Source: Paramacrobiotus metropolitanus (taxonomy: Eukaryota; Tardigrada; Eutardigrada; Parachela; Macrobiotidae). From it: 64,000 nucleotides of DNA. The notes under the pieces are model-generated. The model was not told the origin of the DNA, searched no databases, and saw nothing but the letters and a program-made list of their open reading frames with translations. A program made the translations under genes and the position numbers. Below, in pieces: positions 10,481-49,313 of the stretch. Each line of letters begins with the position of its first letter. Position 1 is the stretch's first letter. Where the stretch lies: the NCBI RefSeq assembly GCF_019649055.1, contig NW_026570227.1:124001-188000 (forward strand), given 5' to 3'.

Positions 10481-10566
10481 TCCCTTTTGCTGCTGCTGCT
10501 GCGGTATCCTTATAACCGCTTAAACGATTAATGGTCCCAATGGATAAACGACACGCTCTGCTACCA

Positions 10567-12909: not shown

Positions 12910-13343
12910 TGTCAGAGGCCCACGACTGCGCCTGGTGCGTACGGCCCACCATGGACGTACTTGCACTCATGCTTGCCGTTATCGCCTCTCTCGCTGTACG
13001 TACGTGTGCTGCTGCACTGCACTCATATCCGCTGAAGCGGATATACGCGGCGCACACACTGAGCATACTTGCTCTCTCGTCCCTCTCTCGCAGTATGACT
13101 CAGCGTTCATACGCTCGCGTTGGATTGAGTCCAGTCTGCGCATCATCACACAGCTGATGGCACACAGCACGTGCTTGCCGCCAGTTGCTTCTTTCACGCC
13201 TTGGCGAACGCTCAAGAGCTTTTCTAGCATTCACCTGCTTAGCCATCAGTGCTTTGTTCTTGCATTCCTGCTATTACGCAGCATTGTTCCCTTTATTTGT
13301 ACAATAAAGCACACTCGTGATCTCCTCGCGCTTGCCTGTTACA
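12910..13343 (+). repeat. 5' LTR of the giant element
   Basis: 434 bp, TGTCAGAGG...CTGTTACA. It holds a near-perfect hairpin (ATATCCGCT, two bases, AGCGGATAT; 13027-13046) and an AATAAA at 13303-13308. I see no clear TATA box. Confidence 0.93.
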
Positions 13344-13361
13344 TGGTAAACAGAATCGTTT
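13344..13361 (+). other. Candidate primer-binding site
   Basis: TGGTAAACAGAATCG begins directly after the LTR's terminal ACA, as expected for a tRNA primer site (TGG pairs with the tRNA CCA end). I could not match the tRNA. Confidence 0.45.
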
Positions 13362-14648
13362 GGTTTTCTTTCGACGGACCTTTTGAGGAGACGGTGAAGG
13401 CTCAAATTACGGAGAACTGGTTAGGAACCTGAAAGTCACTGCTAGATTGATTGCTGAAGCAATCTCTACCTTGACTTTGATCAGAACGGTCGCATCGTCT
13501 TACAGCTGAGGAAAACGAGGATCACTGAAGTGATTCTTGCCCAGCTGGTGAGCACAGTTCCTTGGTCTCTTCCACATTGAAGAGCGGAATCTCATTTCCC
13601 AAACGTACGGACTTTTCCCAACTGACGGATCAGACTCGAACGAGAGTCTGCAGCGCGAACGGATTAACACAATTATACGGGGACCATCGGTTTGAACACC
13701 GACCCGCAACTTTACTCGCGGATTTCAGCACGGAAACGACGGATTTCCGACCTCGGACGGAGGAAATCGACCGGAACCGACACCGACACCGACACTGGTA
13801 AAGTCACGGTTATAGGTCGATTCTAGCCGAAACTAGGTCGGCATTTCACTTTCTAACGGTAGAAAACTATTTCTATCCGTAAATCTAAAATGTCTAACGG
13901 TTAAAAAGTAATTTTCGACGGAGAAACCGACTCGGAATTTTGCTTTTGGTCGAGAACCGACCTGTCAGGTCAACGAACCTGTCTAGACAGTAAGACAAAG
14001 GCTAACCGGCAACAGGTCGGAAATTCTCTTATTTTTGATTTCTAACGGTGTTTCGACCACCAGAAAATTTTCTTAATTAATAAAATTAATTTCTAACGGT
14101 TAAAACTTCAAAATCCGACTAGATAAACTTTCTAGCCGACCTAAAATAATTTGTTTTTCTCGCGGGAAATAGCGCGAAAATTCTCGAACTTCCTTGTGAC
14201 GTCATAACGACCGTTTATCAGTACTTAAAGAGGCAGCCAATCAGCGTGCAGGGGAAAATTCCCATAGCTTAACATAGGCGTGATTCATCGTTTTTTGCAA
14301 ATTTTGCACGCGGCTCGCATTCTGTGACGTAGGCAGAAGTGCAAGATCACTTAACCTGTTACGTCACACCGGTCAGCACAGTAACATAGGACGTACTACA
14401 CCGTACTACTATTACGTACTGTACTGTACCACTGTACCGTATAATAATACCCTGTGTACTGAGTCATCAACAGACACATCAACAACAACAACAACATTTC
14501 ACCGGACGTTCCTGACCCTCGGAAGTTCCTGAACAAAAAGACGTTCCTGATTTTACCGAACATCTTCACACAGAAGATTGTTCGATTTTCTCTTTCTAAT
14601 CTATTAAAACCTTTAAGGCTCCATCAGAGCCGACCTGAGTCGACAACA
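13362..14648 (+). other. 5' leader of the giant element
   Basis: Non-coding, 1.3 kb. It holds at least four copies of TCTAACGGT (near 13853, 13892, 14041, 14092) and many CCGACC/GGTCGG-type words. A GTAAAG after CTG near 13798 could be a splice donor. The end is rich in CAACAACAACA just before the ATG at 14649. Confidence 0.55.
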
Positions 14649-17600
14649 ATGTCGACCTCCCGAGAAAACGAATACGCCAAGAAGTTCAACAAGGACTATT
14701 CTCGGCGTGCGAACACGACCGGGAAGTACTCACTCAGGTACGCCGGTCAGGACAAAAGTCAGCCGTCCTCAACCGACTCGACTAAGTCGGCCGAAGCAAG
14801 GGAGAGGCGTAACGAACGGATTCTCCTAGCCGACTCGAATCCGACCTCGGATGACAGTTTTGAGGACGCCAGGGATAAAACATTCCTGGATACCCAAGCT
14901 GACGTAGCAGCCCCGTCCCACCCGACCGGGGGGAATGTGGAACAGCTGCAGGCAGAGACCACATTGTCTCATGCCGACTCGGAGCCAAGCTTACAAAGAG
15001 CTCAAGACTCGGTAACGGCTACAGAAGCCACCGAGCTCGGACGGCAATCACCCAACAGGACGGAAGAAGTGCCGAAACCGACCTCGTCCAACATGGACAT
15101 ACCGACTAACCAAGTCGGAAGGAAATCGCCGACCACACAGGCCGAGCGAAAATCTCCGAGTAGGGAAGTCGACCAACAGAAGGTCGACCTACCAGCAGCT
15201 TCAGAGGTCGAACAACCGACCCCGACCGGAATGGAAAAACTGATATCTGAAGTCGGCAAAGTCCAACCGACCACACAGGTCGGAAGGATTTCACCGACCT
15301 CAGAGATTGGAGAAAAGGAAGTCGGCAACAAGCAACCGACTTCCCTGGAAGGGCAACCAACCGACACAAAGTCGGATGTGGCCGTCCAGCCGACTAAACT
15401 ACCAACTCGAACAGAAGATTCCGAGGTACCGCCACGAAGCGGCCCTCGCCCAGCTGGATCACCGACCAGCATACCGGCGCCCACCGAACGGATCATTTCA
15501 CCGTTGAGCCGACCTTCGCCAACCGGAAGCGAGTCGACTCGAGTAACCGAAGCTCAACAAACGGTGAAGTCGACTAAGGCGACACAAAGTCGACCTGTCG
15601 ACCTGAAGATCCGACCTTCGCCGCTGATGTTCGAACCTGGCGAACTTGGTAGCGAAAAAACCCCGACACCGAACGACGAAGTCTTTGACACGACAAAGGT
15701 GTCAAGACCGAACAGTGCGGACGGATTCTTCACGGCACCGGTGAAGTCCAACCAGGACGACCTCACCTACCAGGCCAGTGCACTCGAATACACGGCAAAG
15801 AAGTGGATAGCGGCAACACCGCCCGAGAAGATTGAAGATGTCGACCTACTCCGTGCGAGATGCCGTAAGCTGATCACACAGATCGCTTTGGCAGATCAAA
15901 TTGTAAACTTAACGGAAGGATCGCTCCGCAACTCGGCGGATACCCACAAACTCGAACGGAGAAAGTGGGAGCGAGATATGGCCGATGCCAACAAAGGCAT
16001 CGCCACCCAACAACGAGAAATCGACCGGCTAAACGCCATACTGAAGCGAGCTGACTTACCGTGTCGATACGAGGATGACCAAATCGCCATACTTACCGGC
16101 AGATTGGAGCGGTCAACAGCGGCCGTCTTCGAAATCAAAAAAGAGCTCGACGAGGCGCACAAAGCCCTCGAAGAAGCCCAGAAAGACCTGGCCGATGTAC
16201 AGACCGCACTGGTCGAGTCGGAGCAGGCAGCCGGAGCGTTCCACCAGCAACTCAACACGGCCAACGAAGAAGCCGAGGTCTATCGAAACGAAGTCGATAG
16301 ATACGTGGTGGAACTGAAGAAGGCCGATGACGAGATCGACCGTTTAACACATAGAGTAGACGAGCTCGAGTCGGAAATCGAACTTGTCTTCACCAGAATG
16401 GGACGACGGTTCATCGACGCGAACGCTCGGGACATGGGCTTTCCTAACCAAAGGACAGCCGATGTCGACCTGGTGGAAGCAAACGCCCAGCTAGCCGACC
16501 AGGTCCATGGACTGAACCAAGTCCTCAAGGAGGAACAGAAACTCCGAGCTCAACTGGAGTATAACCTGAACGAGGCCCAGAAGGTAAACGAGGCGCAACA
16601 CAGCCGCATTCTTTATCTCGAGGCTCGCGAAACCGAGCTGTACGAATTTGGCGAACAAGCAGCTCGTAACCTCACAGAAATGATGAGGCAGATGGACGAA
16701 ATGGACATCGAAACAAGGTGTCTGAGGGAAGAAAAGAAACACCTGAAACAAAGCCAGGTCGAACTTTCCCCATACCGGGAACAAAACCGGGTTGAACCGC
16801 CCTCATACCGGACGTCCATGGCACAGGATCAACAGCCGTCACGAACAATCAGTGACATCCTGTGGGGAATTAACCCGACCCAGGAGATAGCGAAGAAGGA
16901 GAACAACACCTCCTACTTCGTCGGAGTCGTAACAACCGACCCGAGTGTGGGAACAATCCCACAACCACCAGCAGTACCGAGTGCTCCAGAACCGGAACAC
17001 AATACATCAACCGCGGCACCACGAGTGCCAACGACGAACGTGGCGACAACGACGTCGGTCGGTGCGTACACCAGCACCTCGTACGCGACGCGGACAACAA
17101 TGTACGCGCCGGTACCTAATGCCAGAGGAGACCGGGCGACGGACGCCGAACGTCTCCCAATTCAGCCACCAAGGCCTGGCATGGACGCATATCGCCCACC
17201 AAGGACGAACTCCAATCCAAACTTCCTCCGCCAGAACCCGCAGTTCGACTCGGAACGCGGGCGAGCTCGGTCATTCAACACGACTGACCAGCAGCAGGAC
17301 GGACGAAATGGAGAAGATAGCTCCGACCAACAAGGCCGGAGGCCCCCAAACCGACCTATACAAGGTCGGATGCCGGTTCAGGGAACACAGCCCGACCGGT
17401 ACGGAAGAGTCCACGACCAGCCAAGCGGATTCTATCCGCCGGCGCCGAGACAAAATCGAACGCCCCCTCCACAACAATATGGAGGACAGCCGCCTCGTCA
17501 CGCAGACCAGGCTCAGGCTCGGCATCCGCAACAGGACGGATACGATGGCCACGACGACGTCGCCTACCAACAGGAAGCGTACGAAGACCAACAAGGTCAC

Positions 17601-17711
17601 ATGCCATATGCCAACCCACCACCAGCCCCGGCTGCACAACAAGCTGCGCCGGCGGCACACCCAATCCCCTGGAACAGAATCCAGCACACGTTGCTTTGGT
17701 ACGAGCAATAG
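14649..17711 (+). CDS. Giant element: 1020-residue coiled-coil protein before gag
   Basis: First long frame after the leader. Residues about 1-380 are disordered and rich in Pro, Thr, Ser and Glu, with repeated QPT and SPT words. About 390-720 form a long coiled coil (RLNAILKRADL, ELDEAHKALEEAQKDL, LEYNLNEAQKVNEAQ). The last 300 residues are rich in Pro, Gln, Arg and Asn. It overlaps the capsid frame that follows by 16 bases. It could be an N-terminal extension of Gag or a separate structural protein; I do not recognise a family. Confidence 0.75.
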   Translation: MSTSRENEYAKKFNKDYSRRANTTGKYSLRYAGQDKSQPSSTDSTKSAEARERRNERILLADSNPTSDDSFEDARDKTFLDTQADVAAPSHPTGGNVEQLQAETTLSHADSEPSLQRAQDSVTATEATELGRQSPNRTEEVPKPTSSNMDIPTNQVGRKSPTTQAERKSPSREVDQQKVDLPAASEVEQPTPTGMEKLISEVGKVQPTTQVGRISPTSEIGEKEVGNKQPTSLEGQPTDTKSDVAVQPTKLPTRTEDSEVPPRSGPRPAGSPTSIPAPTERIISPLSRPSPTGSESTRVTEAQQTVKSTKATQSRPVDLKIRPSPLMFEPGELGSEKTPTPNDEVFDTTKVSRPNSADGFFTAPVKSNQDDLTYQASALEYTAKKWIAATPPEKIEDVDLLRARCRKLITQIALADQIVNLTEGSLRNSADTHKLERRKWERDMADANKGIATQQREIDRLNAILKRADLPCRYEDDQIAILTGRLERSTAAVFEIKKELDEAHKALEEAQKDLADVQTALVESEQAAGAFHQQLNTANEEAEVYRNEVDRYVVELKKADDEIDRLTHRVDELESEIELVFTRMGRRFIDANARDMGFPNQRTADVDLVEANAQLADQVHGLNQVLKEEQKLRAQLEYNLNEAQKVNEAQHSRILYLEARETELYEFGEQAARNLTEMMRQMDEMDIETRCLREEKKHLKQSQVELSPYREQNRVEPPSYRTSMAQDQQPSRTISDILWGINPTQEIAKKENNTSYFVGVVTTDPSVGTIPQPPAVPSAPEPEHNTSTAAPRVPTTNVATTTSVGAYTSTSYATRTTMYAPVPNARGDRATDAERLPIQPPRPGMDAYRPPRTNSNPNFLRQNPQFDSERGRARSFNTTDQQQDGRNGEDSSDQQGRRPPNRPIQGRMPVQGTQPDRYGRVHDQPSGFYPPAPRQNRTPPPQQYGGQPPRHADQAQARHPQQDGYDGHDDVAYQQEAYEDQQGHMPYANPPPAPAAQQAAPAAHPIPWNRIQHTLLWYEQ

Positions 17712-18247
17712 CCCACGGACGTCGGCAACCCTTACCACCGTTCGACTGGGACCACACCAAACTTCATGGGTGGCTTAAACAAATTCGAAGCCTGTATCGC
17801 CGAGCCCAACAATGGTACGAGGACGATCAGACTTTCATGGCCGACTTGGTAGCCCAACTAGATGGCCAAGCGGAGCATTGGCATACTCTCGAAGCCGCTG
17901 GAGAACCACTCGGCGGATGGCCGGTCAACTTATGGCTGACCAAGTTCGAGCAGCGATTTGCGGACAAGAACAAGGAAGTGAACATGATATCCCGAATAAA
18001 CAAACGGATATTCCGTTTCGGCGAAGAAACACCGGAACAGTATTACGATGCGATGATGTTCATGAAGTCCCAAGCCCCAACAATGACCGACCAGATGATA
18101 CTATATCATCTCAAGGAGAACATCCACGAACCCAAACTACGGGAGGCCCTGGAAATCAGGATGCCGGCGACGCCAATCGAGCTCCGTGACTACTTACGGA
18201 GCTTCGTCAACGGTAAAGAAATGTACGAGGTGCGCAAACAACGCTAA
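17696..18247 (+). CDS. Giant element: Gag capsid domain
   Basis: 183 residues resembling the retrotransposon Gag domain of Ty3/Gypsy elements. Recognisable blocks are WDHTKLHGWLKQIRSLYRRA, WHTLEAAGEPLGGWPVNLW, LTKFEQRFADKN and RFGEETPEQYYDAMMFM, then an all-helical C-terminal part. It forms the capsid of the virus-like particle. The gag region as a whole is not one continuous frame in this copy. Confidence 0.75.
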   Translation: MVRAIAHGRRQPLPPFDWDHTKLHGWLKQIRSLYRRAQQWYEDDQTFMADLVAQLDGQAEHWHTLEAAGEPLGGWPVNLWLTKFEQRFADKNKEVNMISRINKRIFRFGEETPEQYYDAMMFMKSQAPTMTDQMILYHLKENIHEPKLREALEIRMPATPIELRDYLRSFVNGKEMYEVRKQR

Positions 18248-18249
18248 GG

Positions 18250-19189
18250 CGACTACGCCAGAGTTCGGGCAGCAACACCTGCACCTGTCCCGACTCCACC
18301 TCCGGCGATACCACAACAGACTGGACATCAGCCACACATGATGCCGGGACATCAAACTCCGACGGCACAGTACGGACAACTGAGTCCGGCGCCGACGCCA
18401 CCGGTGCAACAAGCACCAGTCCAGCAACAGACGTGGGCAGGCGCGGCAGCAGCGAACCTGAATCCCCCGGCACCTGGAGTTGGAGCCCCCGTTAACAACT
18501 ACGGCGGCCCGGGTTATAGCTCGGGCGGTAACCAAAGCAACACAGGTTTTGGTTACGGACAGAACTCCAACCAGGGATACTCCGCATACGGACAGTAGCC
18601 TCCACAAGGATACGGCGGCGGAGGTTATGGTCGCGGTAGAGGACGCGGCGGCGGGAATCGCGGCCGTGGGAACTTCATTAACCGCGGCGGAGGCGGCGGC
18701 CCACAAGGCAACCGACCTCCCCAGGCACAACAAAGTGCCCGGCAAGGGACAACGTACGTTGACAAGATGGAGGCAGCCTTCTTCCAGTGGACGAAGGACA
18801 AGACCTTCCGGTGCAGGCACTGCATGTTCAATAACCATGACGAGTCGCGCTGCATCTATGGCTCGGATAACAATCCGAACCTTCGGTGGTACGACGACTG
18901 GTACCGCCGATACTCGACGAATGGCCCGGTAGGCTCGGTGAATCCCTTCTGGAAGGACATCGTGCCGCCGCCACGCCAACGCCAACAGGCAGGAGGCTCG
19001 GGTAGCCCCGGTAACGGAAACCGGTCGCCCGGCCAGGGGAATGGCGGAAACCGCAACAATAGCGGCGGGAACCAACAAGGTTCCCCGGCATACAGAGAAC
19101 CGTTGCCGCCCCGCCAGTTGCTGAACTCGACGCCACCCAACAATGGGCCGGCTCGGAGTAATTCCCCGGGAAACGCCCAAGGTCGATGA
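18250..19189 (+). CDS. Giant element: nucleocapsid-like Gly/Gln-rich region with a Cys-His box
   Basis: A stretch rich in Pro, Gln, Gly and Arg between capsid and protease frames, most clearly open at 18767-19189. That part carries CRHCMFNNHDESRC, a C-x2-C-x5-H-x4-C arrangement close to the zinc knuckle of Gag nucleocapsids, near 18810. It ends with a Gly/Asn/Pro-rich tail. I infer nucleic-acid binding. Confidence 0.6.
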
Positions 19190-22050
19190 GCTCCGGTGAC
19201 TCATTCGACCTCCAACATCCGACCGAACCACCGGACAAGGATAACCCCACTAACCAGCCGCTTACTCCCTGGAATGAATCGAACTTCCCCACGACGATTG
19301 AGCAAGGCTACCAACAGGTAGCCACCATCCTCCAACTACTCGGACTGAACGAAAACAGTTCCGAGGAGGATTTCGCAAAGGCGATATCGACCTCCACAAA
19401 GGAGGCGGAGACGGCTCGGAAGTTAGCCGCTCAGCTCGGCGTGTACGCCAACAATGGCACCGTCGAAGCGTGGCCCGGGATGCAACAGGCACTCGAGGCG
19501 ACCGACCCAGCTCCTCGATTTGAAGCTGGAACGTCGGAGGTCGGAACGCAGGAATTACCCGACCTGAGCAGCGCAAACAATGCGACTGCGCCGTCCGTCA
19601 CACAAAGTGACGTAGTACGGCCCGGCCACGGAAGTTGGACCGGATTGCCGGTGAGGATAAACTCAACCGAGCAGGCCAGACGATGCCCAAGACGCGGAGG
19701 ACCGGGACGCCGATTCACGCACAGGGGCAACAGAAACTTTCCCAATGTATCATCCGCACGCGCAACGGATAGATACGCTGCAATAATGGCAGCCATCGAT
19801 CTCACCGAAGAATCGGAAGGAGAAGTCGAAGAATGGGAAACGGTCCCATTGGAAGCACAGGTACCCGTTTACTCTCGGCCGGGAGAAGCGGACCTCTTCC
19901 AGCCAAAAGAGCGACCAGCCAGAACGATAGCCAGCTCTAGAACAATCCTCAACATCGACTATATGTGGTCGAAATTGAGACCAACAGACGACTCAATAAA
20001 GGAAAGGATACTGGCTCAGGCACAACGGTTCGGAACCGCCAAATTACCGGAGAACGGAGTAGCTAACCGACCCGAGGTACAGGAAGCGGGAGAAGTCGGA
20101 GTCGAACTTACGCAAAGCTCAACTCAACAGCCAACCGACCACGAACCGGTGTCGCTAATCCCCATCAAACCAACGGTGCGGGAAGTGACATTTGAGAAAG
20201 GAATCCATAAGAAACCGAAGACAGTTCGAGCTTGGACACACGAAATCCAAGTCGGATCTACGCCCACATTGGCGATGTTAGATACCGGAGCAGAGACTTC
20301 GCTCATCGAACAACGGTTTTGCGAGAGGAACGGTTTAACGATGCAACCCCTCGGACATTACACCAAAATCCTTGGTGTAGGCGGACAAGTCGCCTTTATG
20401 GTGTCTCACTGCTGTACTGCACCTGTAACAATGCAGGGCTTTACTAGCCACCATACATTCCACGTCCAGCCGACCGAAGCGGACATTCCAGTACTGCTCG
20501 GATGCGACTACCTGCATTCGAAGTTTACCTTCGTCTTAACACCGATCCCTACTACGGAACAACCGGTAGGAACGACGGTAGTGCAGTCTATCCCGATACC
20601 AGAGGCATCGGGCAAGTTACCAAGTGAAGCAAGGATAAGTCGGATTGATCACCCGTTGGACCCTTCGCGAATTTGCCGTGACTGCCGGAATAACAACCGG
20701 ACTCTGCTCGAGGAACTTAAGCTGCACAACGCCATCGAAGCGTACGAAGGACGGAAAAACACCGGCACACTACGACCGGCCAAGACGGTACTGAAGTCTA
20801 TTCCGATACCAGAGGCATCCGCTGAAGCGGATGCTCGGAACTTAGAAGAGGTACAACAAAGGTACCGAACTTGGTTCTCGGGAGCTCGACACCTTCTCGA
20901 CCAACGGACGTTGGAGATGGTGACCACTCTGCGACAGAACGGAGCGGTAACTTACGAGCAAATACGGGACGCACAACAAACGTGTGAACCTGTAATCGCC
21001 CTCATGAACGACATAGAGGACGAAGCATGGGAATGGGAAGATGAACGAATTCCGATCCATCGACAGTATATGGAATATGGACTTTCCGTCCCACGACCTT
21101 TGGAAATGCCTTGCCAAGAACTAGGCTTCCAACTCTTCGCTTACATGCAGCGAGTTCAGTTGCACGGAGAATCGTCAACGACCGCATTCTGGCAACGGTA
21201 TGGCGAGGACACCGCTATAACGCGACACGTACCCGACCCATTACCGCCAATAGAAGAGCATACTCCGACCACAGTGCACTTCGCGAGTAGCCCACCGAAA
21301 CCCCAGGACGACATAATCCTGGAGGAAACGGATAAACCTTACCACTGTACTATTTGCAAGGACAACATTGACGGAGTGGTACGGGCCATAAAGGCTCATC
21401 ACGACTTAACTTGGTCGGATGACAGACCGTCGTCACCGTCACCTCCGCAACAGGAACGGAAGGTAGACCGCTTTCGGAAGCCCCAACAGACGAGCATCCG
21501 ATGGCTGAGCGACATAGGCTCACAGCCAACCGACCTTGAGAATCAGGACGGAGCAAGTCGACCTACCCAACCGACGGATACGGCCGACCAAGCTGAAACG
21601 ACCACACTGGTCGAAGTCGGTAATATACCGCAAGTCGGACAGGAGGACGGAACAACCGTCGAAAATGAAGATTTTCAGTCGGACGACTCGGATATACAGA
21701 GTACGAGCGACTCGGCGGATACCGACTCCGATAACCGACCTTCGGAAGAATCCGAGGAAGAAGACGACGAAGAATTCGATCCGTCAGTCCGATACTGTAA
21801 GACGGATAATCCGATCATAAACGACTCGGGCGATTCGTCATCGGAGGACGAAGAACCGACCTACGATGTACGGCTAACCACAGCATTGCGGACTATAGTT
21901 CACACAGAATTTATAGTCGAGCAACCGGAACAAACCGAACAACCTAAGCCAGTCGACTCCGAACAACAGGAAGAACTCGACCAACTTAAGGCTTTGTGGG
22001 AATTTGGAGAGGTAAACCGGAGGAAGACGATTTCCGACCTCCAACCCTAG
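19186..22050 (+). CDS. Giant element: aspartic protease frame, 954 residues
   Basis: Long frame starting just before the end of the nucleocapsid region. The retroviral-type protease core is near residues 360-440: LAMLDTGAETSLIE carries the catalytic Asp (codons at 20281-20289), followed by VLLGCDYLHSKF. A Cys2-His-like stretch, CTICKDNIDGVVRAIKAHHD, lies near 21345-21400. The C-terminal 200 residues are strongly acidic (runs of Ser, Asp and Glu). It overlaps the start of the pol frame by 55 bases. For most Gypsy elements the protease is far shorter, so the flanking parts are unusual. Confidence 0.82.
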   Translation: MSSGDSFDLQHPTEPPDKDNPTNQPLTPWNESNFPTTIEQGYQQVATILQLLGLNENSSEEDFAKAISTSTKEAETARKLAAQLGVYANNGTVEAWPGMQQALEATDPAPRFEAGTSEVGTQELPDLSSANNATAPSVTQSDVVRPGHGSWTGLPVRINSTEQARRCPRRGGPGRRFTHRGNRNFPNVSSARATDRYAAIMAAIDLTEESEGEVEEWETVPLEAQVPVYSRPGEADLFQPKERPARTIASSRTILNIDYMWSKLRPTDDSIKERILAQAQRFGTAKLPENGVANRPEVQEAGEVGVELTQSSTQQPTDHEPVSLIPIKPTVREVTFEKGIHKKPKTVRAWTHEIQVGSTPTLAMLDTGAETSLIEQRFCERNGLTMQPLGHYTKILGVGGQVAFMVSHCCTAPVTMQGFTSHHTFHVQPTEADIPVLLGCDYLHSKFTFVLTPIPTTEQPVGTTVVQSIPIPEASGKLPSEARISRIDHPLDPSRICRDCRNNNRTLLEELKLHNAIEAYEGRKNTGTLRPAKTVLKSIPIPEASAEADARNLEEVQQRYRTWFSGARHLLDQRTLEMVTTLRQNGAVTYEQIRDAQQTCEPVIALMNDIEDEAWEWEDERIPIHRQYMEYGLSVPRPLEMPCQELGFQLFAYMQRVQLHGESSTTAFWQRYGEDTAITRHVPDPLPPIEEHTPTTVHFASSPPKPQDDIILEETDKPYHCTICKDNIDGVVRAIKAHHDLTWSDDRPSSPSPPQQERKVDRFRKPQQTSIRWLSDIGSQPTDLENQDGASRPTQPTDTADQAETTTLVEVGNIPQVGQEDGTTVENEDFQSDDSDIQSTSDSADTDSDNRPSEESEEEDDEEFDPSVRYCKTDNPIINDSGDSSSEDEEPTYDVRLTTALRTIVHTEFIVEQPEQTEQPKPVDSEQQEELDQLKALWEFGEVNRRKTISDLQP

Positions 22051-25000
22051 TTGTCCAGCAGTTGTCAACAGAACCGACCTTGGCTAACTTAACCGACCAA
22101 CAGAAGTCGAAGCATTTCAACACATGGAAAGCACCAGTCGCCAAAGTAACGACGATCGAAGAGTTGGACCTGGACAACAAATGCCCAGAAGTCCACCACC
22201 TAAAGCTGGATCCCCACGTAGAGACGAAAGCGCTAGACCGACAAGTCGTCTTTAACAGCGAACGAGTCTCTCTCCCACCATGGTCAACATGCTCGATCAA
22301 GGTACGGACGGCCAAACCAATGGACCCGAGAAGGCCAATTCACTTCTCTACCCTACAACGGGTAGTCCGACCTATTCGGCCAATCGAAGCCAAGATCGAC
22401 ATCCGACCGACAAACGACACGGCCTGGATAAACATTCAGAACACGACTCACCAAACGAAGGTGCTGAAGAAAGGTGTTCGACTTGGACATATGCAATATG
22501 CTGACGTCTATGAACCGGAAATCAACAACGGATTTGTCGAATGGGAACTCCCACACAGAGTGGCGAAGACCTGGCCCCCGACTCGGGACGTGAAGCCAAA
22601 ACCCCAGTTCGAAGTCTTCGAGGCAACAGGAGTTCGATCTCAACGGAAAGTGGAACTCATCCCTCGAGCCGTAACCATGGTAGAAGTCGTCCTGGACGTA
22701 CCGGTATCCAAGGACCAAAAACTGATGTACCTCGGTGAATCCGACCCCAAACGAGACGGAATCGAATTCATGGACGGCGTAACCAAGCATGACGGGAAAC
22801 GATTCACCGTCATGGTGGCTAACCACACTCATCGGGAAGTCACCTTACGCAAAGGTGCCCCGATGGGCCGAGCTGAAGCATTTACAATAATGACGGACGA
22901 CCAGAAGGTCGAAGAAGCACGAGTTAACACGGCTGAAGTCGAACAAGAAGACGCCGAATCCCAAGAGGAGCGACGAAGAATCATCGACTCCATGAACTTC
23001 GGAAAAAACTTAACCGATGAGCAACTAGCCAAACTGAAGGCAGTTGCATGGGATTACCGGACAGTATTTCCGACTTCGAAGAAACCCTACGGAGACGTCA
23101 AAGGGGTAACACATACCATTGATGTCCAGGGTGCACAGCCGATCAAGATGAACCCCACCAGGACAAGCTGGAAGGGACGTGAATTCATCCAAAAACACGT
23201 GCAAGAGTTGCTCGACCAAGGAGTCATCGAACCGTCATCGGCAGCATGGAGCTTCCCCGTCGTCTTAGCCGCAAAACGGAACGGAGACGGCACGGTAGGA
23301 ACACGCTTCTGCATCAACTATATCAAGTTGAACGCTGTCACAAAGAAGAACAACTACCCACTACCGAACCCGGACGAGCTACTGGACCGATGTGCCGGAA
23401 TGGAATACTACGGCAAAGTAGACTGTCAGTCCGGTTTTTGGCAAATTCCTATGGACGAACAATCCAAGGACTACACGACCTTCGTAACACCCGAAGGTAT
23501 GTGGAGATTCAACCGTATGCCGTTTGGAGTCTGCAACGGACCAGCAACTTTCCAAATGCATATGGACAAAATCACGGCATCAGCTCGGAAGAAGGGTGTG
23601 TTCGCCTACATTGACGACATCATCTTCTTCGGCAAAACGTTCGAAGACTTCCTTGAGGCTTTCCGAGCAACTCTCGAATGCCTCCGCGATGCTGGATTCA
23701 CGGTCAAACCCTCCAAATGTGAGATCGGAACGGACAGACTGCTGTTCCTCGGACACGTCCTTAGCAAGAACGGAGTCCAGACCGACGATGAGAAAGTGGC
23801 CTGTGTCGCAGAACAAAGCTGCCCGAGAACTGAACGGCAACTTAGGTCGTTCCTCGGACTGGCCAACTACTATCGGAAATTTATCCGAGGATACGCTCAG
23901 AAAACCTCAAAAATGTACGAGCTCCTCCGAAAGGATAAGAACATAAAGCTCGATTGGACGGAAGCCCACACGGCTGAGTTCAACGATATCAAGAAGGCGC
24001 TGACGGAAGCACCTGTACTGGCGAAGTTCGACCCGACTAAGAAGTCCGTCATCGAATGTGACGCAAGCGGAGCCGGACTTGGCGCGGTGATCTCACAAGA
24101 CGATCATCCAATCGCCTACGCCAGTCGAGTCCTACGTGGACCGGAACTCAACTACGGAGTTACCGAATGGGAATGCTTGGCCGTGGTATGGGCGGTGCAG
24201 AAATTTAAGCACTTCATCGACCACGGACCATTCACCGTAAGAACGGATCATCGAGCACTGCAGAACCTGCTCCGATGCGAGTCGAACCGACCCGGCATCA
24301 ACCCTCGACTAACGAGATGGGCACTGGCTTTACAAGGACGGGACATAACCATCGAGTATAAGCCGGGAGTTTTCTGCGACAATGCGGACGCCCTGTCGAG
24401 ATGGCCACTCGAACGTAGTGACGACAAAGATCCACACGAAGAGTTAGACCAAGTCCCCAACTTCGAGGACTTCAAGGACGAAATCAAGGTCTGTACAATA
24501 CGGACTCTCAGACGTCTGAAGGCAAATGCCTCAAAGAAAAGGAAGAAGGATCTAAAGGAACCACCGAAAATCCCCCTTCCACCGGTTCTCCCCGGATGCA
24601 ATGTCATAACCGACTGGGACGACTTGAGCACGGCAGAAGTCCGAGTCATTAACATCCCAGCACCGGAGACACCGGAACCGACAGTTCAAACCGTCAACAC
24701 GGCGGAAGACGAAAAGTTGGAAGTCGAAAAAACACTCCCACCTCCACCCGAACCGAACGTGGAACTTCGGAAAGCGCAGTTGCGAGACCCACAACTACGC
24801 AAAATTATTGACGAACTGGAACACCCAGAGAACCTTGACCACAAGTCGCAACATCTGGAACATTACCAGATGGCGCAAGGAGTATTGTACAGACTGAAGA
24901 CCATCAACACAAAGTTGGAACGGTGCTTCGTCGTACCACTTTTCATGCGCAACCAAATCATCCGATCGCTCCATGACGGAAAAACCGGAAACCATTTCGG

Positions 25001-26776: not shown

Positions 26777-26952
26777 GGCCATAGATGTAAAACTTAGAAT
26801 AAGTTTTAGGTAGCCTAACAATACCTAGGCATAGATGGACCTTTGGTGTCGAAATGGAACCTCTTCAGTTGACCGGAACATCTTCAGTTGAATGTACGGG
26901 AGTTGGTAGAATTCTAACGCGCCGTATTTCCTTTCCTTGACAGCAGGCAACA

Positions 26953-33995: not shown

Positions 33996-34653
33996 TTAGA
34001 AGGAAACAAGAAATACACACATACTTCGACTATTCTCGACATCAAGGTTAGCCGGTTAGGTTAACTGTACATTTTGAACAACGGATCACCCACGTACTAC
34101 ATAATCCAATAGTAAAAAAATAAAAGAAATAATTATTTGACGTGCCCGCCATTTCCGCCTTACCACAAACACATGCGAATCGTAGTTCCAATGCGAGCCT
34201 TAGGTTGACGGCCCCGAGTTATTAATACAAAAATTTTGTTTCAGTGTGAGATCAAACATGGTGATTTGCACATTTATGATTATTTTGCGGAGACACCAGT
34301 AGAACGTCAGATGGTATTGATGTATACGCAAACTTGTTGATCTTAAAATTTTGTACTTCAACATACTTGAATAATTGGGTGATCCGTTTTCAAAATATTC
34401 AGTCAAGCTGATCCGTTGTTGAGAAAAGTCGCAGCATGTATAGCAACTTTTAAATGCCTTCGCTGGAAAAAATATGTTTATATAAAAAGGATCTGTCTTA
34501 TATCCGTCAATATGTTGCTGTATCTTTGTATCCACCGCATCCACCAAATATCCAAAAATATCCGTATCTTTCGAGACAGCTCGAGATATGGATATGATAT
34601 TTGGATATTTAAGCTCTGGATACACTTTTGGATATTGGATATTACCATCCTTA

Positions 34654-42145: not shown

Positions 42146-42474
42146 TCTCGTCATCCGAGGAAGAAACCGATGACGATGACGACGACGACGAAGATTTCCA
42201 AACACCTGGAAATGGCTCGCCCAGGGACGACGACGACGACGACGACGACGGAAACGGTAAACCTCCACCACCGTCGAGCTCGGCACCCCAACAGCAGGCC
42301 GAACCGGAGATACCGGATAAACAACCCGAAGAGAAGGATAGCGGCGACAAGGCCGACGATTCCAAGAGTAACGAAGATGACGGCGGAGTATACGTCCCTC
42401 GCCAGTACGGTAAACGAGTACCACTGACGCCCGACTCCGACCACCAGCCACTTCGATCGGACTTTCACGAGGAT
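42146..42474 (+). repeat. GAC-triplet runs between accessory frames
   Basis: Trinucleotide runs of GAC at about 42173-42192 and 42222-42250, in a stretch that would code for Asp runs in one frame. They may be an acidic linker. Confidence 0.5.
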
Positions 42475-43263
42475 ATGATAGAAGTCCTACCAGACGACAT
42501 CCCCCCATTGGTCAACGTTAGGCTGAAATACACCGGCATCAAATCGGCTTCGAAACCCAAGCCGAGCGTCTCAGAATACGACGCGGGATGGATGTATACA
42601 TTCGCCGCTCTGAAGGCCTTGGCTACACGTGGGCCAAAATTTGCCACACCAAGAATCGCCTTCAAACTCCTCCAACACTGGAAGGTAGATGAGATGGGCG
42701 ACTGGCGACAACTTAGCCAGAACAACGTACGACATTACTGCGACCTAGGATACCATGCAGGGAAGCTGATACGTACATATACCAGCGGGAAGCGGATGTA
42801 CTACGAGTTCTTATTGGCTAAGAAAGACCCGGCTCCTTCAACATATGAAGGATGGATACACGCCATTGAAGCGTGCATGGAAATGCCCTGGCACCCCGAC
42901 GGACTTACCCGCGGAGAAATACTTCACCAACTCATAGCGCGGTTTGAGTTCCAGTGGACATCAGCGGAACCGCAGTTGGTCGACCCTAAATACAAGGCTA
43001 AACCAGACACAGTTGCCGGACGGAAGAAGTACTCCCTGGATGACGAACTAGAATTCGTCATATCGAAGGCACTCCACCAACAACGATTTGCCACGAATAC
43101 CGATAAAACCCAAGGCGGTCAACGGTTCATCGCCTTAAACCCGTCAACCCACCGCTACGGACATTTACCGAAGGAACGACCTACCTCGGCACAATCCACC
43201 GAGTTGGCCGATTCGCACCAAGCAAGTCGGCTTGAGTCGCCAGAAGTACCCACACGGGAATGA
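42475..43263 (+). CDS. Giant element: accessory frame with a compact domain, 262 residues
   Basis: Unlike its neighbours this frame has balanced composition with many Trp, Tyr and Cys, so it probably folds. Visible blocks are YDAGWMYTFAALKALATRGP, LLQHWKVDEMGDWRQLSQ, YCDLGYHAGKLIRTY and YEGWIHAIEACMEMPWHPDG. The last 60 residues are disordered. A winged-helix or other DNA-binding fold is possible but not shown. Confidence 0.55.
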   Translation: MIEVLPDDIPPLVNVRLKYTGIKSASKPKPSVSEYDAGWMYTFAALKALATRGPKFATPRIAFKLLQHWKVDEMGDWRQLSQNNVRHYCDLGYHAGKLIRTYTSGKRMYYEFLLAKKDPAPSTYEGWIHAIEACMEMPWHPDGLTRGEILHQLIARFEFQWTSAEPQLVDPKYKAKPDTVAGRKKYSLDDELEFVISKALHQQRFATNTDKTQGGQRFIALNPSTHRYGHLPKERPTSAQSTELADSHQASRLESPEVPTRE

Positions 43264-43515
43264 GGGAACGCAGAAAGCGTTGGGAGAGAGGCATAACCGA
43301 CCTCCTTCCATTGACACCACATAGGCGTCATCGACCAACAGAATTCGACTTACCTCATTAGACGACCACAAAGGCGTCTTGGACCAGTTCGAGAACCGAC
43401 CTGGCCCGACCGTAGTAATTATAGGGTGTAAATTATACGATGCAACCGAGAAACGGTTTGCTGACTTTTGTCTTGACAGACTCGCACGGAAGAACTCCGA
43501 ACGGAAGCCTTTACG

Positions 43516-44094
43516 GTGGACTGCCAACAGTGCATGGATAACGCGACGAGGGACAACAACAGAATGCCCTGCGCGCTGTGCATTGTATCCTTTACGAACG
43601 AACGAATTTTCGGCACCGGAGCGCAACACCGAGCTCAGGCGGCGGCACTTTACCTAAACGTGGTCGCTGGCAACTTAAGCGCGTACCGGTACTTCGCCGG
43701 CAGAGAATACCTGATTAATCAACTGGAGTCATACGAACAGGATAACCTGGCCACAATCCAGCGACAACGAGCTCGCGACCCGAGATGGGAAGAAACTCGA
43801 CCACCAGTCCTAACAAATAGGCTGTTCGAGTACCGCCAGATGCTGGACTTGCAGCGTCAACTTGAGGACCAGAAGAAGATAAAGGAGGTCGATAGGAAGA
43901 TCGCCACAATGCGAGTCCATCCACCACCGACTGATTACGAACCAGAAATAAAGATTCGGGTACAGACACCCACACAGAGTCTCCCGACAGCCGGAGAACT
44001 GATCCCCACTATACGCGACGTCTTCGTCGGAGACCCACACCGACCAATGACGGGCACCTCGTTAACGATGATAATGAACATGCCGGACTATTAA
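43516..44094 (+). CDS. Giant element: Cys-containing helical accessory frame, 192 residues
   Basis: The N-terminus has four Cys in pairs (CQQC, and CALC 14 residues on), possibly a metal site. A helical middle follows (YFAGREYLINQLESYEQDNLATIQRQRARDP is its core), then a coiled coil (LQRQLEDQKKIKEVDRKIATM). No known family. The first Met is chosen because the Cys pairs follow it; the frame may begin upstream. Confidence 0.5.
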   Translation: MDCQQCMDNATRDNNRMPCALCIVSFTNERIFGTGAQHRAQAAALYLNVVAGNLSAYRYFAGREYLINQLESYEQDNLATIQRQRARDPRWEETRPPVLTNRLFEYRQMLDLQRQLEDQKKIKEVDRKIATMRVHPPPTDYEPEIKIRVQTPTQSLPTAGELIPTIRDVFVGDPHRPMTGTSLTMIMNMPDY

Positions 44095-44141
44095 ATTACA
44101 CTACTATTACAGTCACCTTCACACCGGCAACTCAGGAACAG

Positions 44142-45683
44142 TTGATGGCAATCCCACACAGGGCAACGCCAGTGGTCACGCAGGCCCGTCCAACTGTTTC
44201 TCAGCAGATCCCCCAACAAGGAACTCGGACCCAACCGACAGCTCAACAGCAGCAGCGCCGACCGAGCAAAAACCTTGCGGGACATGATCTTCGACATCGG
44301 ATCGGCCCAGTTGATCTTCGAGACAGAATCGAAGCGCAACGAGCCGTTATCCATGAAGCGGGAAAGGAGCCAACTAGAGCTCCACCAGGAAAACGTACTG
44401 GATCGGGAGAAACAGGAATCGGACTTACGGTCGACTTAACAAATAAATCGAAACGTAACTTTGTCCCACCCGACCAGCAGCCGAAAGCCCAACAAGCGGA
44501 ACCGCCGGCCGAAGTCCAAGCTGAACCAGCGGCTCAACAGGAGCAGATGGACGTTGATATAGCGGACCAGATGGCACAACTGCCACAAGTGGAAGTGCCG
44601 ATCCGAGAAGACCCTCGCTATGATCGAGCTCGACAACAAGGAATCGAGGTCGTCATGCTACACCCCACCGAACGAACGAACCACATTATGAACGTCATGA
44701 ATTACGAGGAACGTTACCGACCACAAATTTGGCGGATGGTAGAAAACCTTCGTCAATTCCTCGTCCGATCTGGATATCAGATGCTGTTCGAACAACACCA
44801 GTGGCAAGCCGACTTCAACATGAACGCGCACACAGCGCCGAATGTTGAACACCCGTACACCAGATCGAATGCGTTGCCGTCAATGACCGACCCGGTCTTG
44901 CTGAATGTACCATTGTACAGCCCGGACGGAACACGTGCGAGCCAACTAGGAGCTCGGGAATACTCCCATGACGAGTTGGAGAGTGTTGCCCAGTTCGTCA
45001 TCACGGACGCACACCCAGCCTTTGTAATCACCGCGGCTCGGGCAGCACTGGATTTAACCCAGTATCTTCCGGAAGGAGAAGTCGACATGGCCCAGGACGG
45101 AGTCACGGCATTCCTGCGATTCATCTTCGCAGCTCGACTCGGCAATTACTTTTGCCATTACACCCTGTACGGACTGTACCACAACGAAGCGATACCAGCG
45201 GCTGTGGAAACCCTCGTGGCCCAACTTGGCACACCGATGAGAAGTGTTATCCTGACTGTCTGGATGCGCGACTTGCTGTACACCCACGAACGGTATGCGA
45301 CAAAGTACGCCTTTCGTGAGGACCACATAGATCCCAGCGACGACGCGACCAGATTTATCAGCTGGTATCGACAGGAGAAAACTTTGCCCAGTGGATTTAA
45401 CTCGTCGCCCTACGAACCTTGGATGTCGGATGACATAGCACCCGGCGCACGACCGTACGCGCTGCGGCTCCGCAAACAAGCGGCCAGGGAATCGAGGAAG
45501 GGCAGAGCGGAGCGCCCAGGCCAGGAAACAGATGAGACTGACGAGATGTCTCAACGGAGCGGCCCGGCGACTTGTAAACCAAAGGACCCAACCATCCGGC
45601 CACATAACCGACCTGGCCCGGACGACGATGAAGAAGAAGATTACTTCGGCGGCGATAAACCCGTCGAAGTCCCACTCAGTTAA
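44142..45683 (+). CDS. Giant element: last accessory frame, 513 residues
   Basis: A disordered Gln/Pro-rich N-terminus (about residues 1-145) precedes a folded region (about 150-430) rich in Tyr, His and Trp: YEERYRPQIWRMVENLRQFL, AREYSHDELESVAQFVITDAH, LPEGEVDMAQDGVTAFLRF, LGNYFCHYTLYGLYHNEAIP. The tail is basic and then acidic. It has no signal peptide or clear membrane helix, so I see no envelope protein. Function unknown. Confidence 0.55.
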   Translation: MMAIPHRATPVVTQARPTVSQQIPQQGTRTQPTAQQQQRRPSKNLAGHDLRHRIGPVDLRDRIEAQRAVIHEAGKEPTRAPPGKRTGSGETGIGLTVDLTNKSKRNFVPPDQQPKAQQAEPPAEVQAEPAAQQEQMDVDIADQMAQLPQVEVPIREDPRYDRARQQGIEVVMLHPTERTNHIMNVMNYEERYRPQIWRMVENLRQFLVRSGYQMLFEQHQWQADFNMNAHTAPNVEHPYTRSNALPSMTDPVLLNVPLYSPDGTRASQLGAREYSHDELESVAQFVITDAHPAFVITAARAALDLTQYLPEGEVDMAQDGVTAFLRFIFAARLGNYFCHYTLYGLYHNEAIPAAVETLVAQLGTPMRSVILTVWMRDLLYTHERYATKYAFREDHIDPSDDATRFISWYRQEKTLPSGFNSSPYEPWMSDDIAPGARPYALRLRKQAARESRKGRAERPGQETDETDEMSQRSGPATCKPKDPTIRPHNRPGPDDDEEEDYFGGDKPVEVPLS

Positions 45684-46420: not shown

Positions 46421-46443
46421 AAGCCGACTACACAAGTCGGCTT
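46421..46443 (+). repeat. Perfect 9-bp stem-loop with ACACA loop
   Basis: Arms AAGCCGACT and AGTCGGCTT around ACACA. This is the longest perfect member of the dispersed hairpin set. A second one with arms CCGACC and GGTCGG is 7 bases upstream (46398-46414). Confidence 0.7.
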
Positions 46444-48879
46444 TGGAAACGATAGCCAGATTGACTAACGAGAAATCGACATCATGGCCGACCACACAGG
46501 TCGACCATGGCGACCAACAGAAGTCGACCACGGAGAATGGACGAAAGCAGGCAGTAGCCATGTGGTAATCCAACCGGATTCTCCGTTTGAATCCAGACCT
46601 ACAGGCTCTGTACCTGGAGATCAACCGCAGTCTCCCCCGGACGAAATCGGGTAAACCAGCCGATTCACCGGTGACCACGACTACGCGCGTCTCTGAACGT
46701 GCTGCCATTCCCTGAAGAGGAACAGCGACGGTGATTTGGATACTGGTGTACCAACGACTCCGCCGCGACCTGCTTCCCCATGTCTCCAATGGAACATCCT
46801 AGGCGGACCGAGTTAGAATACTTGATCTTCACCCCCCTAACGAACCCCGATGACGATGACCACCTGCCCGCAACAATACCGGCCAGTCGGTCTTCGTCAG
46901 CGACAAAGAAAAATTTCCCCGCGGACGTGAGTTGTCTACCCCCAACAGAAGCGGCTAGGCGTCACAGGTTCGCGGCAAAACAAAATGGAAGAATCGGATC
47001 TGACGACCTCAGGGACTTGCATGTGCATGAATTTTGAACCAAAGAGCTCGCCTTGTCAACCGGGGCCACAAAGACCCTTAGTGTTGCGAGCGAGCGCAGT
47101 GCTTGACGAAACGCCAGTCAATCGGCTAACAGACGCCAAGGAAACTCTACCTCGCAAGACTCGGCGACCAAGAAGCAAGTTATTCGGATTGACCGACCTC
47201 AACAGTAGCTCGGATCCGACCTGGAGTTCACGTCAGAAATCACAGAAGGAACGGAGTTGTGCTGCCGAACATCCTTCTGCCCGTCCGAACTGACCGTAGG
47301 ATGTCCTGACACCAAGGACCCGGCCAACTGTAGCCGAACGCACAGAACTCCTAAAATGAAGTTGACAACCACCAGATGGAGGTCGGAAGTAAGCGACAAC
47401 AGCTCGGAAAACCAACTAGAAGTACGAAATCGACCTCTCAGTGGAAGAACTTACATTCCCGGCGGATAGACACAAAGTTTATCCGACCTGGGGAAGTCGG
47501 AAAATAACCGACCTCCGAACTCGGATATGGATATCCGACCTCAAGCCGAGGTCGGAACCGACCGCATAGAAGTCGGGAGGGTACGACAACAAGTCGGTAA
47601 AGGCATTTAGAAGTCGAGAACCGACCTCCTAACGGAAAAATCCGACCTTCGGACGGATGGAAACATAGTTCATCCGACCTCCCGAAGTCGACCATAACCG
47701 ACCACATGTCGGAAGTCGGCAACTTAGTCAACATGACGGAAGAAGAACGACAACTATCTGCAGTGGACGAATTCGACTTGAAGGAACTTGTTTAGCCCCA
47801 CATGGGCATGTCATTGCAGGTTAACCCTAGTCGACCACCGGCAGATAGGACGACCGACCTCGACAAAAGGTCGGATAACAACGGAACAAATCGGAGGGAA
47901 GTCGACTTGATACTTCCGCCGAAGAAACTTATGGATTCCGAGCGGACCTTCGAGACAGTTCGACTCGGATAGCTCCAAACCAGGCTCGTGGTAGCAGATT
48001 GAACGGTTGTAACCGACCACTTTTGAACGGAACTGCTGTACATGACGACCACACAGGCCGCATGACTCACATACAGCTTTTTCCGACCTGCACTTTAGCA
48101 ATTCGGAACATAGCCGAATTCCCCCTAGCCGCCGGTTGACTTACCGGTCGGCCGACCTTGGTCAAACCGACCTCGGTTCTATTCCCCATTCAGAGAGGAT
48201 GCCTCGGCATTTGCAACCGCAACAGTGCCTCTCTACCTCTGACGGACGGATACGAGTCGGAAGTAAGTGTTTAACCGTGCTTATCCGACCTCGGTGAATG
48301 CAACCGGTTACGAAGGGTAACTTGGGAACTGATGCCCCGGACCCAGCCTTACCGGATGAAAGTGGACAGGAGACCCCGTGGAGACTCAACTGCCCCGTGG
48401 ACGTCATCCTAGTCGGAATAGGACCCCGGACAGATTTTTGCATTTTTTTAGCATTTCTCCTAACAAACGGAATTGTATTTTTCTAGTTCGATCTCTTTAA
48501 CAGATCTGTTTTGTAACCCCTTTGCTCACTGGAATTGTGATTAAACTTTATTTCATACTTTCTTTCGCGCTGTATACAACTTTCATCACACTTTTCTTTC
48601 ACATTGTTCTCCGTTGCCAACAGAAGCAAGAAGCCAGCCAACAGAAGCACCACCGGTCCAACGAAACGCCCGAGCGGCTTCCGGATTTTTCGGCCGTGAG
48701 TGGCTTCCACTCATGGGTTCGGAAGTGAAGAAGGGACGGTCGACCAGACACCGGACTCCCACTGCCAGAGGACGCGTACCAGCGACCCCACATTGGGTCC
48801 GACTGGAGAGTTGTGCGGTACTGGTGCGGTACCGAGTCGGAGCATCCTTCGCAGGAGCTCGGATTCCCGCCCAGAGGCA

Positions 48880-49313
48880 TGTCAGAGGCCCACGACTGCG
48901 CCTGGTGCGTACGGCCCACCATGGACGTACTTGCACTCATGCTTGCCGTTATCGCCTCTCTCGCTGTACGTACGTGTGCTGCTGCACTGCACTCATATCC
49001 GCTGAAGCGGATATACGCGGCGCACACACTGAGCATACTTGCTCTCTCGTCCCTCTCTCGCAGTATGACTCAGCGTTCATACGCTCGCGTTGGAATGAGT
49101 CCAGTCTGCGCATCATCACACAGCTGATGGCACACAGCACGTGCTTGCCGCCAGTTGCTTCTTTCACGCCTTGGCGAACGCTCAAGAGCTTTTCTAGCAT
49201 TCACCTGCTTAGCCATCAGTGCTTTGTTCTTGCATTCCTGCTATTACGCAGCATTGTTCCCTTTATTTGTACAATAAAGCACACTCGTGATCTCCTCGCG
49301 CTTGCCTGTTACA
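48880..49313 (+). repeat. 3' LTR of the giant element
   Basis: 434 bp, the same as 12910-13343 except one T/A difference near 49095. AATAAA at 49273-49278 is the likely polyadenylation signal. It is followed by TCAT, the right target duplication. Confidence 0.93.

What the first reader, a model, noticed from the sequence alone, without database searches (positions are those of the whole stretch)
12910..49313. A 36-kb Ty3/Gypsy-type element, fresh and complete between near-identical LTRs
Seen: 434-bp LTRs with one difference, TCAT on both sides, gag-protease-pol in order. Typical Gypsy elements are 5-10 kb. Even without the nested insertion this one is about 30 kb, matching only the known giants such as planarian Burro or plant Ogre. 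The LTR identity suggests a recent move, so such a large genome may still be mobile in this lineage.
Basis: partly seen in the sequence, partly recalled or inferred. Interest (0 to 1): 0.88.

Follow-up and report, generated by a model that had tools for sequence, protein, structure and literature searches.

The report
Giant spliced Gypsy retrotransposon in tardigrade
This is one copy of a roughly 30-kb virus-like jumping element in a tardigrade genome that carries two large extra genes kept by natural selection and appears to use RNA splicing to express one of them, which helps show how such oversized elements stay functional.

Summary
Window 12910-49313 is one LTR retrotransposon: 434-bp LTRs with one mismatch, TCAT on both sides, gag, protease and Ty3-type RT-RNaseH-integrase. 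A 6,057-bp nested insert (hAT-like element holding a Helitron) accounts for the excess; without it the element is 30,339 bp, and three other copies of 30-33 kb share its map.

Downstream of pol lie two orphan genes, ORF3 (open for 3,302 codons in copy C69) and ORF4 (about 730), under purifying selection as pol is. Gag-Pol has a -1 frameshift signature. ORF4 is reached by splicing from ORF3's start codon: an annotated protein is that spliced product, and six genomic copies lack exactly this intron; trees point to several separate losses, so spliced genomic RNA was probably reverse-transcribed more than once.

'Fresh' is fair for the LTRs; 'complete' only for extent, since all four long genes of this copy are interrupted. 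It matches Burro in size, not in build. New variant of a known kind; functions of ORF3 and ORF4 unknown.

The parts
12906..12909 (.). target-site duplication TCAT, left
12910..13343 (+). 5' LTR, TG...CA
13344..13358 (+). primer-binding-site position, begins TGGTA directly after the LTR; primer tRNA not identified
   Evidence: sequence; the one tRNA pattern tried had no match
13545..13553 (+). best-scoring leader splice donor CTG^GTGAGC (intron would start at 13548); its use is inferred
   Evidence: identical in 9 of 10 leaders
14649..19189 (+). ORF1: N-terminal part of about 1,000 aa, then Gag capsid-like region and CCHC knuckle; interrupted in this copy, one open frame of 1,555 aa in copy C205
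17321..18247 (+). open frame with Gag capsid-like stretch within ORF1 (recognised by eye; Pfam not significant)
18812..18853 (+). CCHC zinc knuckle C-x2-C-x4-H-x4-C
   Evidence: by eye
19168..19174 (+). -1 frameshift slippery site G GGA AAC at the ORF1/ORF2 overlap; use inferred
   Evidence: exact in 6 of 7 copies
19181..19235 (+). hairpin 6 nt after the slippery site; its loop can form 7 further pairs downstream (pseudoknot-capable)
19162..26405 (+). ORF2 pol: protease, RT, RNase H, integrase; frame broken near 22 kb in this copy, open across that place in C69 and C85
20245..20517 (+). aspartic protease domain
23301..23759 (+). reverse transcriptase domain
23955..24335 (+). RNase H domain
24936..25451 (+). 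integrase zinc-binding and core domains
26923..26943 (+). splice acceptor-like TTTCCTTTCCTTGACAG^ nine bases before the ORF3 ATG; use inferred
26953..43263 (+). ORF3, giant orphan ORF; interrupted here by a stop, the nested insert and frame changes; one open frame of 3,302 codons (stop to stop) in copy C69
27099..27113 (+). ORF4 splice donor ACCGCAG^GTAGATAA (intron starts at 27106)
28589..28596 (.). 8-bp duplication GCAATATC left of the nested insert
28597..34653 (.). nested insert, 6,057 bp: hAT-like TIR element (TAAGGATGG...CCATCCTTA) holding a Helitron with a Rep-helicase ORF on the - strand (28979-33559)
34654..34661 (.). 8-bp duplication GCAATATC right of the nested insert
43460..43479 (+). 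ORF4 splice acceptor GCTGACTTTTGTCTTGACAG^ with branch-point-like GCTGAC
   Evidence: such a site in 35 of 37 copies that were not scored as intronless
43480..45683 (+). ORF4 (about 730 aa, orphan); frame broken in this copy
48880..49313 (+). 3' LTR
49314..49317 (.). target-site duplication TCAT, right

Best explanation
A Ty3/Gypsy LTR retrotransposon of Paramacrobiotus metropolitanus with a genome of about 30 kb, 29.5 kb of it internal. Unspliced RNA serves as genome and makes Gag, and Gag-Pol by a -1 frameshift (signature shown, use inferred). ORF3 is probably read from a leader-to-ORF3 spliced RNA (inferred). ORF4 is made by removing an intron of about 10 kb that holds nearly all of ORF3, so both proteins share one start codon and the first ~51 residues (shown at DNA level by intron-free copies and by a gene model; no RNA seen). 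RNA that has lost this intron but still carries pol is at times reverse-transcribed and integrated, giving copies with ORF4 but without ORF3 (strongly implied by six such copies; LTRs were looked at for only one of them, C14). ORF3 and ORF4 are conserved parts of the element; lacking membrane segments they are more likely internal or particle-associated proteins than envelope (inferred). The window copy is young by its LTRs but has broken genes.
For: Structure and Ty3 kinship. Same map in other copies, without the insert. Selection, window against six copies: RT-IN dN/dS 0.07-0.10 in four of six comparisons (the others 0.37 and 0.26), ORF3 pieces 0.08-0.28 (one 61-codon piece 0.53), ORF4 pieces 0.07-0.27. 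Frameshift: GGGAAAC exact in 6 of 7 copies, hairpin at +6, 7-pair second stem reached by 216 of 20,000 shuffles. Splicing: P0121 (LOC129596996) is ORF3's first 51 aa joined to ORF4, and its parts lie on C99 across a GT-AG gap of 9,980 bp; acceptor-like site in 35 of 37 copies; six genomic copies match the joined junction without mismatch, reversed control none; all six carry the 3' part of pol directly upstream; the ORF4 tree needs 5 changes of state, at least 4 by well-supported branches.
Against: No RNA data here. No DNA copy of the leader-to-ORF3 junction was found. The gene model's RNA support is unknown. Recombination between copies is plain and could spread an intronless segment, lowering the number of true losses; the pol tree forces only 2 changes by its well-supported branches. 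In C205 the slippery site reads TGGAAAC; the plain hairpin fold is only moderately better than shuffles (z -1.60, 14 of 200). No clear polypurine tract was seen before the 3' LTR. The AlphaFold models were useless (mean pLDDT 42.7 and 32.2). C104 and C69 have no matching target duplication. By the crude acceptor score the minus strand has more high scorers than the plus strand (25 against 3).
Confidence: 0.85

Rival explanations
1. An ordinary Gypsy element (5-10 kb) swollen by nested insertions and captured host DNA that does nothing for it.
For: One real nested insert of 6 kb is present; Pfam finds no significant domain in ORF3 or ORF4.
Against: ORF3 and ORF4 recur with the same map in other copies and evolve under purifying selection as pol does; ORF4 was scored at 75 places in the genome.
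Confidence: 0.03
2. The extra ORFs are an envelope module, making this an errantivirus-like or Burro-like endogenous virus.
For: Splicing to a gene 3' of pol is how gypsy-type env is made (recalled); Burro is reported to hold an env-like region (PMC6431247, passages).
Against: No membrane-length hydrophobic stretch in ORF3 or ORF4 of C69: best 19-residue means 1.09, 1.27 and 1.23; no Pfam env match.
Confidence: 0.06
3. The intronless copies are the older state and ORF3 was gained later by insertion at that point; ORF4's junction is not a splice site.
For: Copies without ORF3 exist and C152 branches outside most others in the ORF4 tree (midpoint root only).
Against: The most divergent ORF4 rows (C5, C68, C74, C160, C58, C41, C60, C7b) carry the acceptor-like sequence; C176 sits inside an intron-bearing group next to C3 and C390; the boundaries are GT and AG with branch-point-like and pyrimidine signals; an annotated protein uses the same junction.
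Confidence: 0.05
4. The window copy's frame breaks are sequencing or assembly errors and its genes are intact apart from the nested insert.
For: Near-identical LTRs beside several frame breaks.
Against: The nested insert is flanked by a clean duplication, so decay has at least begun; with one LTR difference, decay after insertion over some 27 kb of coding DNA could give a handful of lesions (my arithmetic, not a call).
Confidence: 0.2

Closest known systems
Burro giant Gypsy elements of planarians (PMC6431247, passages read)
   Same: Gypsy-type, total over 30 kb with LTRs, several kb of extra coding sequence
   Different: Burro: internal region up to 25 kb, one enormous polyprotein holding Gag, an env-like region and Pol, with BIR, ankyrin, MATH and BCL2-like motifs. 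Here: 29.5 kb internal, Gag and Pol in different frames, extra ORFs after pol, none of those Pfam domains found
Ogre elements of plants (PMC6431247, passages)
   Same: Ty3/Gypsy giants with extra ORFs
   Different: Ogre owes much of its size to LTRs of 1.9-6.5 kb, with an 11-13 kb internal region; here LTRs are 434 bp
Retroviruses and env-bearing gypsy elements (recalled)
   Same: -1 frameshift for Gag-Pol, spliced RNAs for 3' genes
   Different: no env-like gene found; the ORF4 intron itself contains nearly all of a gene of over 3,300 codons, and both genes share a start codon
BARE Copia element (PMC3735527, search listings only; its use of splicing is recalled)
   Same: separate RNA pools from one LTR element
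   Different: Copia type, one ORF; here splicing reaches a 3' accessory gene in a Gypsy element
Other P. metropolitanus Gypsy Pol proteins P0001-P0003
   Same: closest by RT (P0002 84% over 333 tree columns); P0002 and P0003 form a well-supported clade with the window on a long stem (P0001 was dropped from the tree for a short match)
   Different: about 65% (P0001, P0002) and 67% (P0003) by the search table; whether they belong to 30-kb elements was not tested

Membership tests
Ty3/Gypsy (Metaviridae-type) LTR retrotransposon | paired LTRs with TG...CA ends and short target duplication | tested here: met
   4-bp duplications match in 4 of 6 copies with both flanks readable (C7, C122, C205, C186; not C104, C69)
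Ty3/Gypsy (Metaviridae-type) LTR retrotransposon | Pol order protease, RT, RNase H, integrase, RT nearest to Ty3 | tested here: met
   (Ty3 Gag-Pol 1.4e-92)
Ty3/Gypsy (Metaviridae-type) LTR retrotransposon | Gag with capsid domain and CCHC knuckle | tested here: inconclusive
   knuckle and capsid-like stretch by eye; Pfam not significant; PDB nothing credible
Ty3/Gypsy (Metaviridae-type) LTR retrotransposon | tRNA primer-binding site and polypurine tract | tested here: inconclusive
   TGG follows the LTR; the tRNA pattern tried found nothing; no clear polypurine tract
Burro | Gag, env-like region and Pol in one giant frame | tested here: not met
   ORF1 and ORF2 in different frames with a slippery site
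Burro | BIR, ankyrin, MATH or BCL2-like domains | tested here: not met
   no such Pfam match in the element's ORFs
Burro | RT groups with Burro | not tested
   no Burro sequence was at hand
Ogre | LTRs of 1.9-6.5 kb | tested here: not met
   434 bp
Env-bearing endogenous retrovirus | envelope gene with membrane segment | tested here: not met
   best 19-residue hydropathy means in ORF3 and ORF4 of C69 are 1.09, 1.27 and 1.23

The most novel reading that the evidence does not exclude
The element exists in two genome forms linked by splicing: a ~30-kb form with ORF3 and a ~20-kb form without it, produced again and again when spliced genomic RNA is packaged and reverse-transcribed. Intron retention would then be a switch both between two proteins (ORF3 or ORF4) and between two heritable genome sizes, with ORF3 acting in trans or being needed only to handle the long genome.
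Probability: 0.2. Interest if true: 0.85.

Novelty: new variant of a known kind. Interest (0 to 1): 0.72.

Why it matters
Giant retrotransposons raise an open question: how is a 30-kb RNA expressed, packaged and copied, and does the extra DNA do anything? Here the extra genes are under selection across copies, splicing seems to have left a permanent DNA record, and gene-level dissection becomes possible in an animal with a 170-Mb genome. Set against the 2019 review, its internal region (29.5 kb) exceeds Burro's (up to 25 kb; PMC6431247, passages). In print: no held paper has both 'paramacrobiotus' and 'retrotransposon'; one has P. metropolitanus, genome and transposable elements (PMC9224920, listing only, not opened); a tardigrade TE paper treats two other species (PMC11071193, passages). 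The listings for giant LTR elements showed none larger (20 of 806 shown, one paper). Most subscription papers are not held.

Tried and rejected
Structure prediction of a window ORF holding the ORF3 C-terminal part, and of ORF4, failed, so no fold search was made. Homologue search with an ORF3 piece (its first ~94 residues come from the nested insert): none among 7,985 candidates scored; for ORF4 one protein, same species, among 7,996 scored. PDB profile search for ORF4: nothing credible. Gag capsid against PDB: nothing credible. Internal repeats in ORF1 N-part, ORF3 halves, ORF4: none at E 1e-3. Primer tRNA: one typed pattern, no match. Leader-to-ORF3 junction in DNA: none. I first took the nested insert for a plain Helitron; its ends and genome-wide pieces showed a hAT-like element holding a Helitron. 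The 'open frame' lengths of the genome search are not used as proof of intactness: for C104 the tool gave 3,405 aa where my own reading shows ORF3 interrupted. A Burro-inclusive tree could not be made.
Full report
What is there. The window is G000:C7:124001-188000 of a 169.8-Mb assembly. Contigs C1 (4,484,719 bp) and C99 (527,856 bp) have the lengths of the contigs that carry Paramacrobiotus metropolitanus proteins P0001/P0002 and P0121, so the genome is taken to be that tardigrade. LTRs lie at 12910-13343 and 48880-49313 (434 bp, one mismatch) with TCAT on both sides. Pol carries protease, RT, RNase H and integrase in order; its best PDB match is Ty3 Gag-Pol at 1.4e-92. In an RT-RNaseH tree of 51 rows (chosen from 119: named rows, every third, a few more; P0001 dropped earlier for a short match) the window groups with P0002 and P0003 of the same species on a long stem.

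One element, not two. From the 40 scored LTR matches (of 420 candidates) I chose six copies that showed two LTRs within about 35 kb, not a random sample. C104, C69 and C122 match the window almost end to end and lack the block at about 28.6-34.65 kb (C122 has an extra stretch near 44.8 kb, and small gaps occur); C205, C186 and C85 lack different stretches between about 21.9 and 39.2 kb. LTR pairs of these six differ by 6, 9, 8, 5, 0 and 1 substitutions in that order, gaps aside (C85's 3' LTR is cut at the fetched edge). Four-bp duplications match in window, C122, C205 and C186, not in C104 and C69.

The nested insert. 28597-34653 (6,057 bp) has inverted ends TAAGGATGG...CCATCCTTA and an 8-bp duplication GCAATATC, a hAT-like pattern (recalled). 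Genome-wide (40 of 84 candidates scored) its first ~211 bases recur alone, and from ~207 on other places recur alone, many only over about 207-254, which in reverse complement is a hairpin followed by CTAG, a Helitron 3' end (hairpin by eye, rule recalled). The - strand ORF carries Helitron_like_N and PIF1 helicase. So a Helitron sits in a hAT-like element that sits in the Gypsy element. Without insert and one duplication the element is 30,339 bp, 29,471 bp internal.

Genes. Stop to stop, ORF1 is open for 1,555 aa in C205; ORF2 is open across the window's 22-kb break in C69 and C85; ORF3 is open for 3,302 codons in C69, where it ends somewhat earlier than in C205; ORF4 for 730 aa in C69 and C205 and 741 in C104. 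In the window all four are interrupted, so the LTR identity does not mean an intact copy. Nei-Gojobori comparisons of window pieces with six copies give dN/dS of 0.10-0.30 for ORF1, 0.15-0.22 for the protease part (0.37 in the decayed C186), 0.07-0.10 for RT-IN in four of six comparisons (0.37 in a decayed C104 piece, 0.26 in a 188-codon C85 piece), 0.08-0.28 for ORF3 (0.53 in one 61-codon piece) and 0.07-0.27 for ORF4. ORF4 was scored at 75 of 654 candidate places; of 77 rows, 41 have a listed frame of at least 700 aa and no stop in the aligned part (my count from the table; the aligned part is mostly the last ~530 residues). ORF3 had 46 rows from 29 scored of 456 candidates. Neither has a significant Pfam domain or a homologue outside this species in the two searches made.

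Frameshift. At 19168 ORF1 reads G GGA AAC, ORF2 lies in the -1 frame, a hairpin starts 6 nt on, and its 9-nt loop can pair 7 bases downstream (216 of 20,000 shuffles do as well). The heptamer is exact in 6 of 7 copies. Plain hairpin folding was only moderately better than shuffles (z -1.60, 14 of 200). Use of the site is inferred.

Splicing. P0121 (LOC129596996) begins with ORF3's first 51 residues and continues as ORF4. On C99 the two parts lie 9,980 bp apart with CCGCAG^GTAAAC and TTTTGACAG^ACT at the ends. The donor GT is present in all five intron-bearing copies where I read it (C7, C104, C122, C69; C99). An acceptor with branch-point-like and pyrimidine stretch was found in 35 of 37 copies not scored as intronless (misses C104 and C84, pattern written after seeing some of them). 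Two copies, C176 and C152, came up by chance with exon 1 joined to ORF4 in the DNA, pol directly upstream, and fused frames of 782 and 780 aa. A genome scan for the joined junction found six copies, all without mismatch though three were allowed, reversed control none; all six run from window 27105 straight to about 43477-43498, with the 3' part of pol upstream. C14 has a 5' LTR at the expected distance and the first 262 bases of a 3' LTR, then the match ends; the LTRs of the other five were not read. In an ORF4 tree of 42 rows the six need five changes of state, at least four by well-supported branches, and 0 of 200 bootstrap trees unite them; a pol tree of 11 rows needs four, at least two, again 0 of 200. 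Recombination may have moved such segments, so the number of separate losses is given as several, not exact.

A further acceptor-like stretch ends nine bases before the ORF3 ATG (rank 2 of 319 on the element's + strand without the insert by a crude score; ORF4's acceptor ranks 7; the minus strand, insert included, has more high scorers, 25 against 3, so rank alone proves little). CTG^GTGAGC at 13548 is the best leader donor, identical in 9 of 10 leaders. No DNA copy of that junction was found, so this step is inferred.

Recombination. In bins of 150 codons across the ORF3 part 34665-39275, dS between window and single copies jumps, in C99 for instance from 0.20 to 2.26 (also C2, C478, C104). 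Copies are mosaics of old lineages, as expected if two RNAs are packaged together (inferred). LTRs between copies differ by only 3-5% while synonymous divergence is mostly 0.1-0.5; I have no full explanation.

Comparison. Size puts it with Burro (internal up to 25 kb, total over 30 kb; PMC6431247, passages), but its build differs in each tested point. It is a new variant of a known kind: a Ty3/Gypsy giant with retrovirus-style expression, two selected orphan genes and what looks like a DNA record of its own splicing. What ORF3 and ORF4 do is not known; my leaning is particle-associated or RNA-handling proteins for a long genome, without direct evidence.

Noticed in passing
28597-34653: Three-layer nest: Gypsy element, hAT-like TIR element with 8-bp duplication, Helitron inside it.
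   Followed up: yes
L021-L028 (copies C205, C186, C85): Copies of about 20-22 kb with similar LTRs but different internal deletions taking out much of pol and the first part of ORF3, perhaps non-autonomous derivatives mobilised in trans.
   Followed up: partly
ORF3, from about window 34665 on: Mosaic half of ORF3: C99, C2, C478, C65, C3 (2.48 Mb) and C114 are only about 51-70% identical there while the next part is at 81-89%.
   Followed up: partly
12910-13343 and other copies: LTRs are far more alike between copies than synonymous sites of the genes; cause unexplained.
   Followed up: no
48800-48879: No clear polypurine tract before the 3' LTR; CGCCCAGAGGCA stands there in the window and in the six copies read.
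   Followed up: no
4306-12459: Cluster of long direct and inverted repeats left of the element, unidentified.
   Followed up: no
55642-56199 and 56360-56938: 89-bp tandem repeat and a 10-bp satellite-like array (ATAATTCTAA, about 58 copies) to the right of the element.
   Followed up: no
52497-53573, 57450-58121, 728-1768: Flanking genes: rhodopsin-type GPCR, BIR-RING inhibitor-of-apoptosis-like protein, and a tyrosine-recombinase match below Pfam's cut-off.
   Followed up: no
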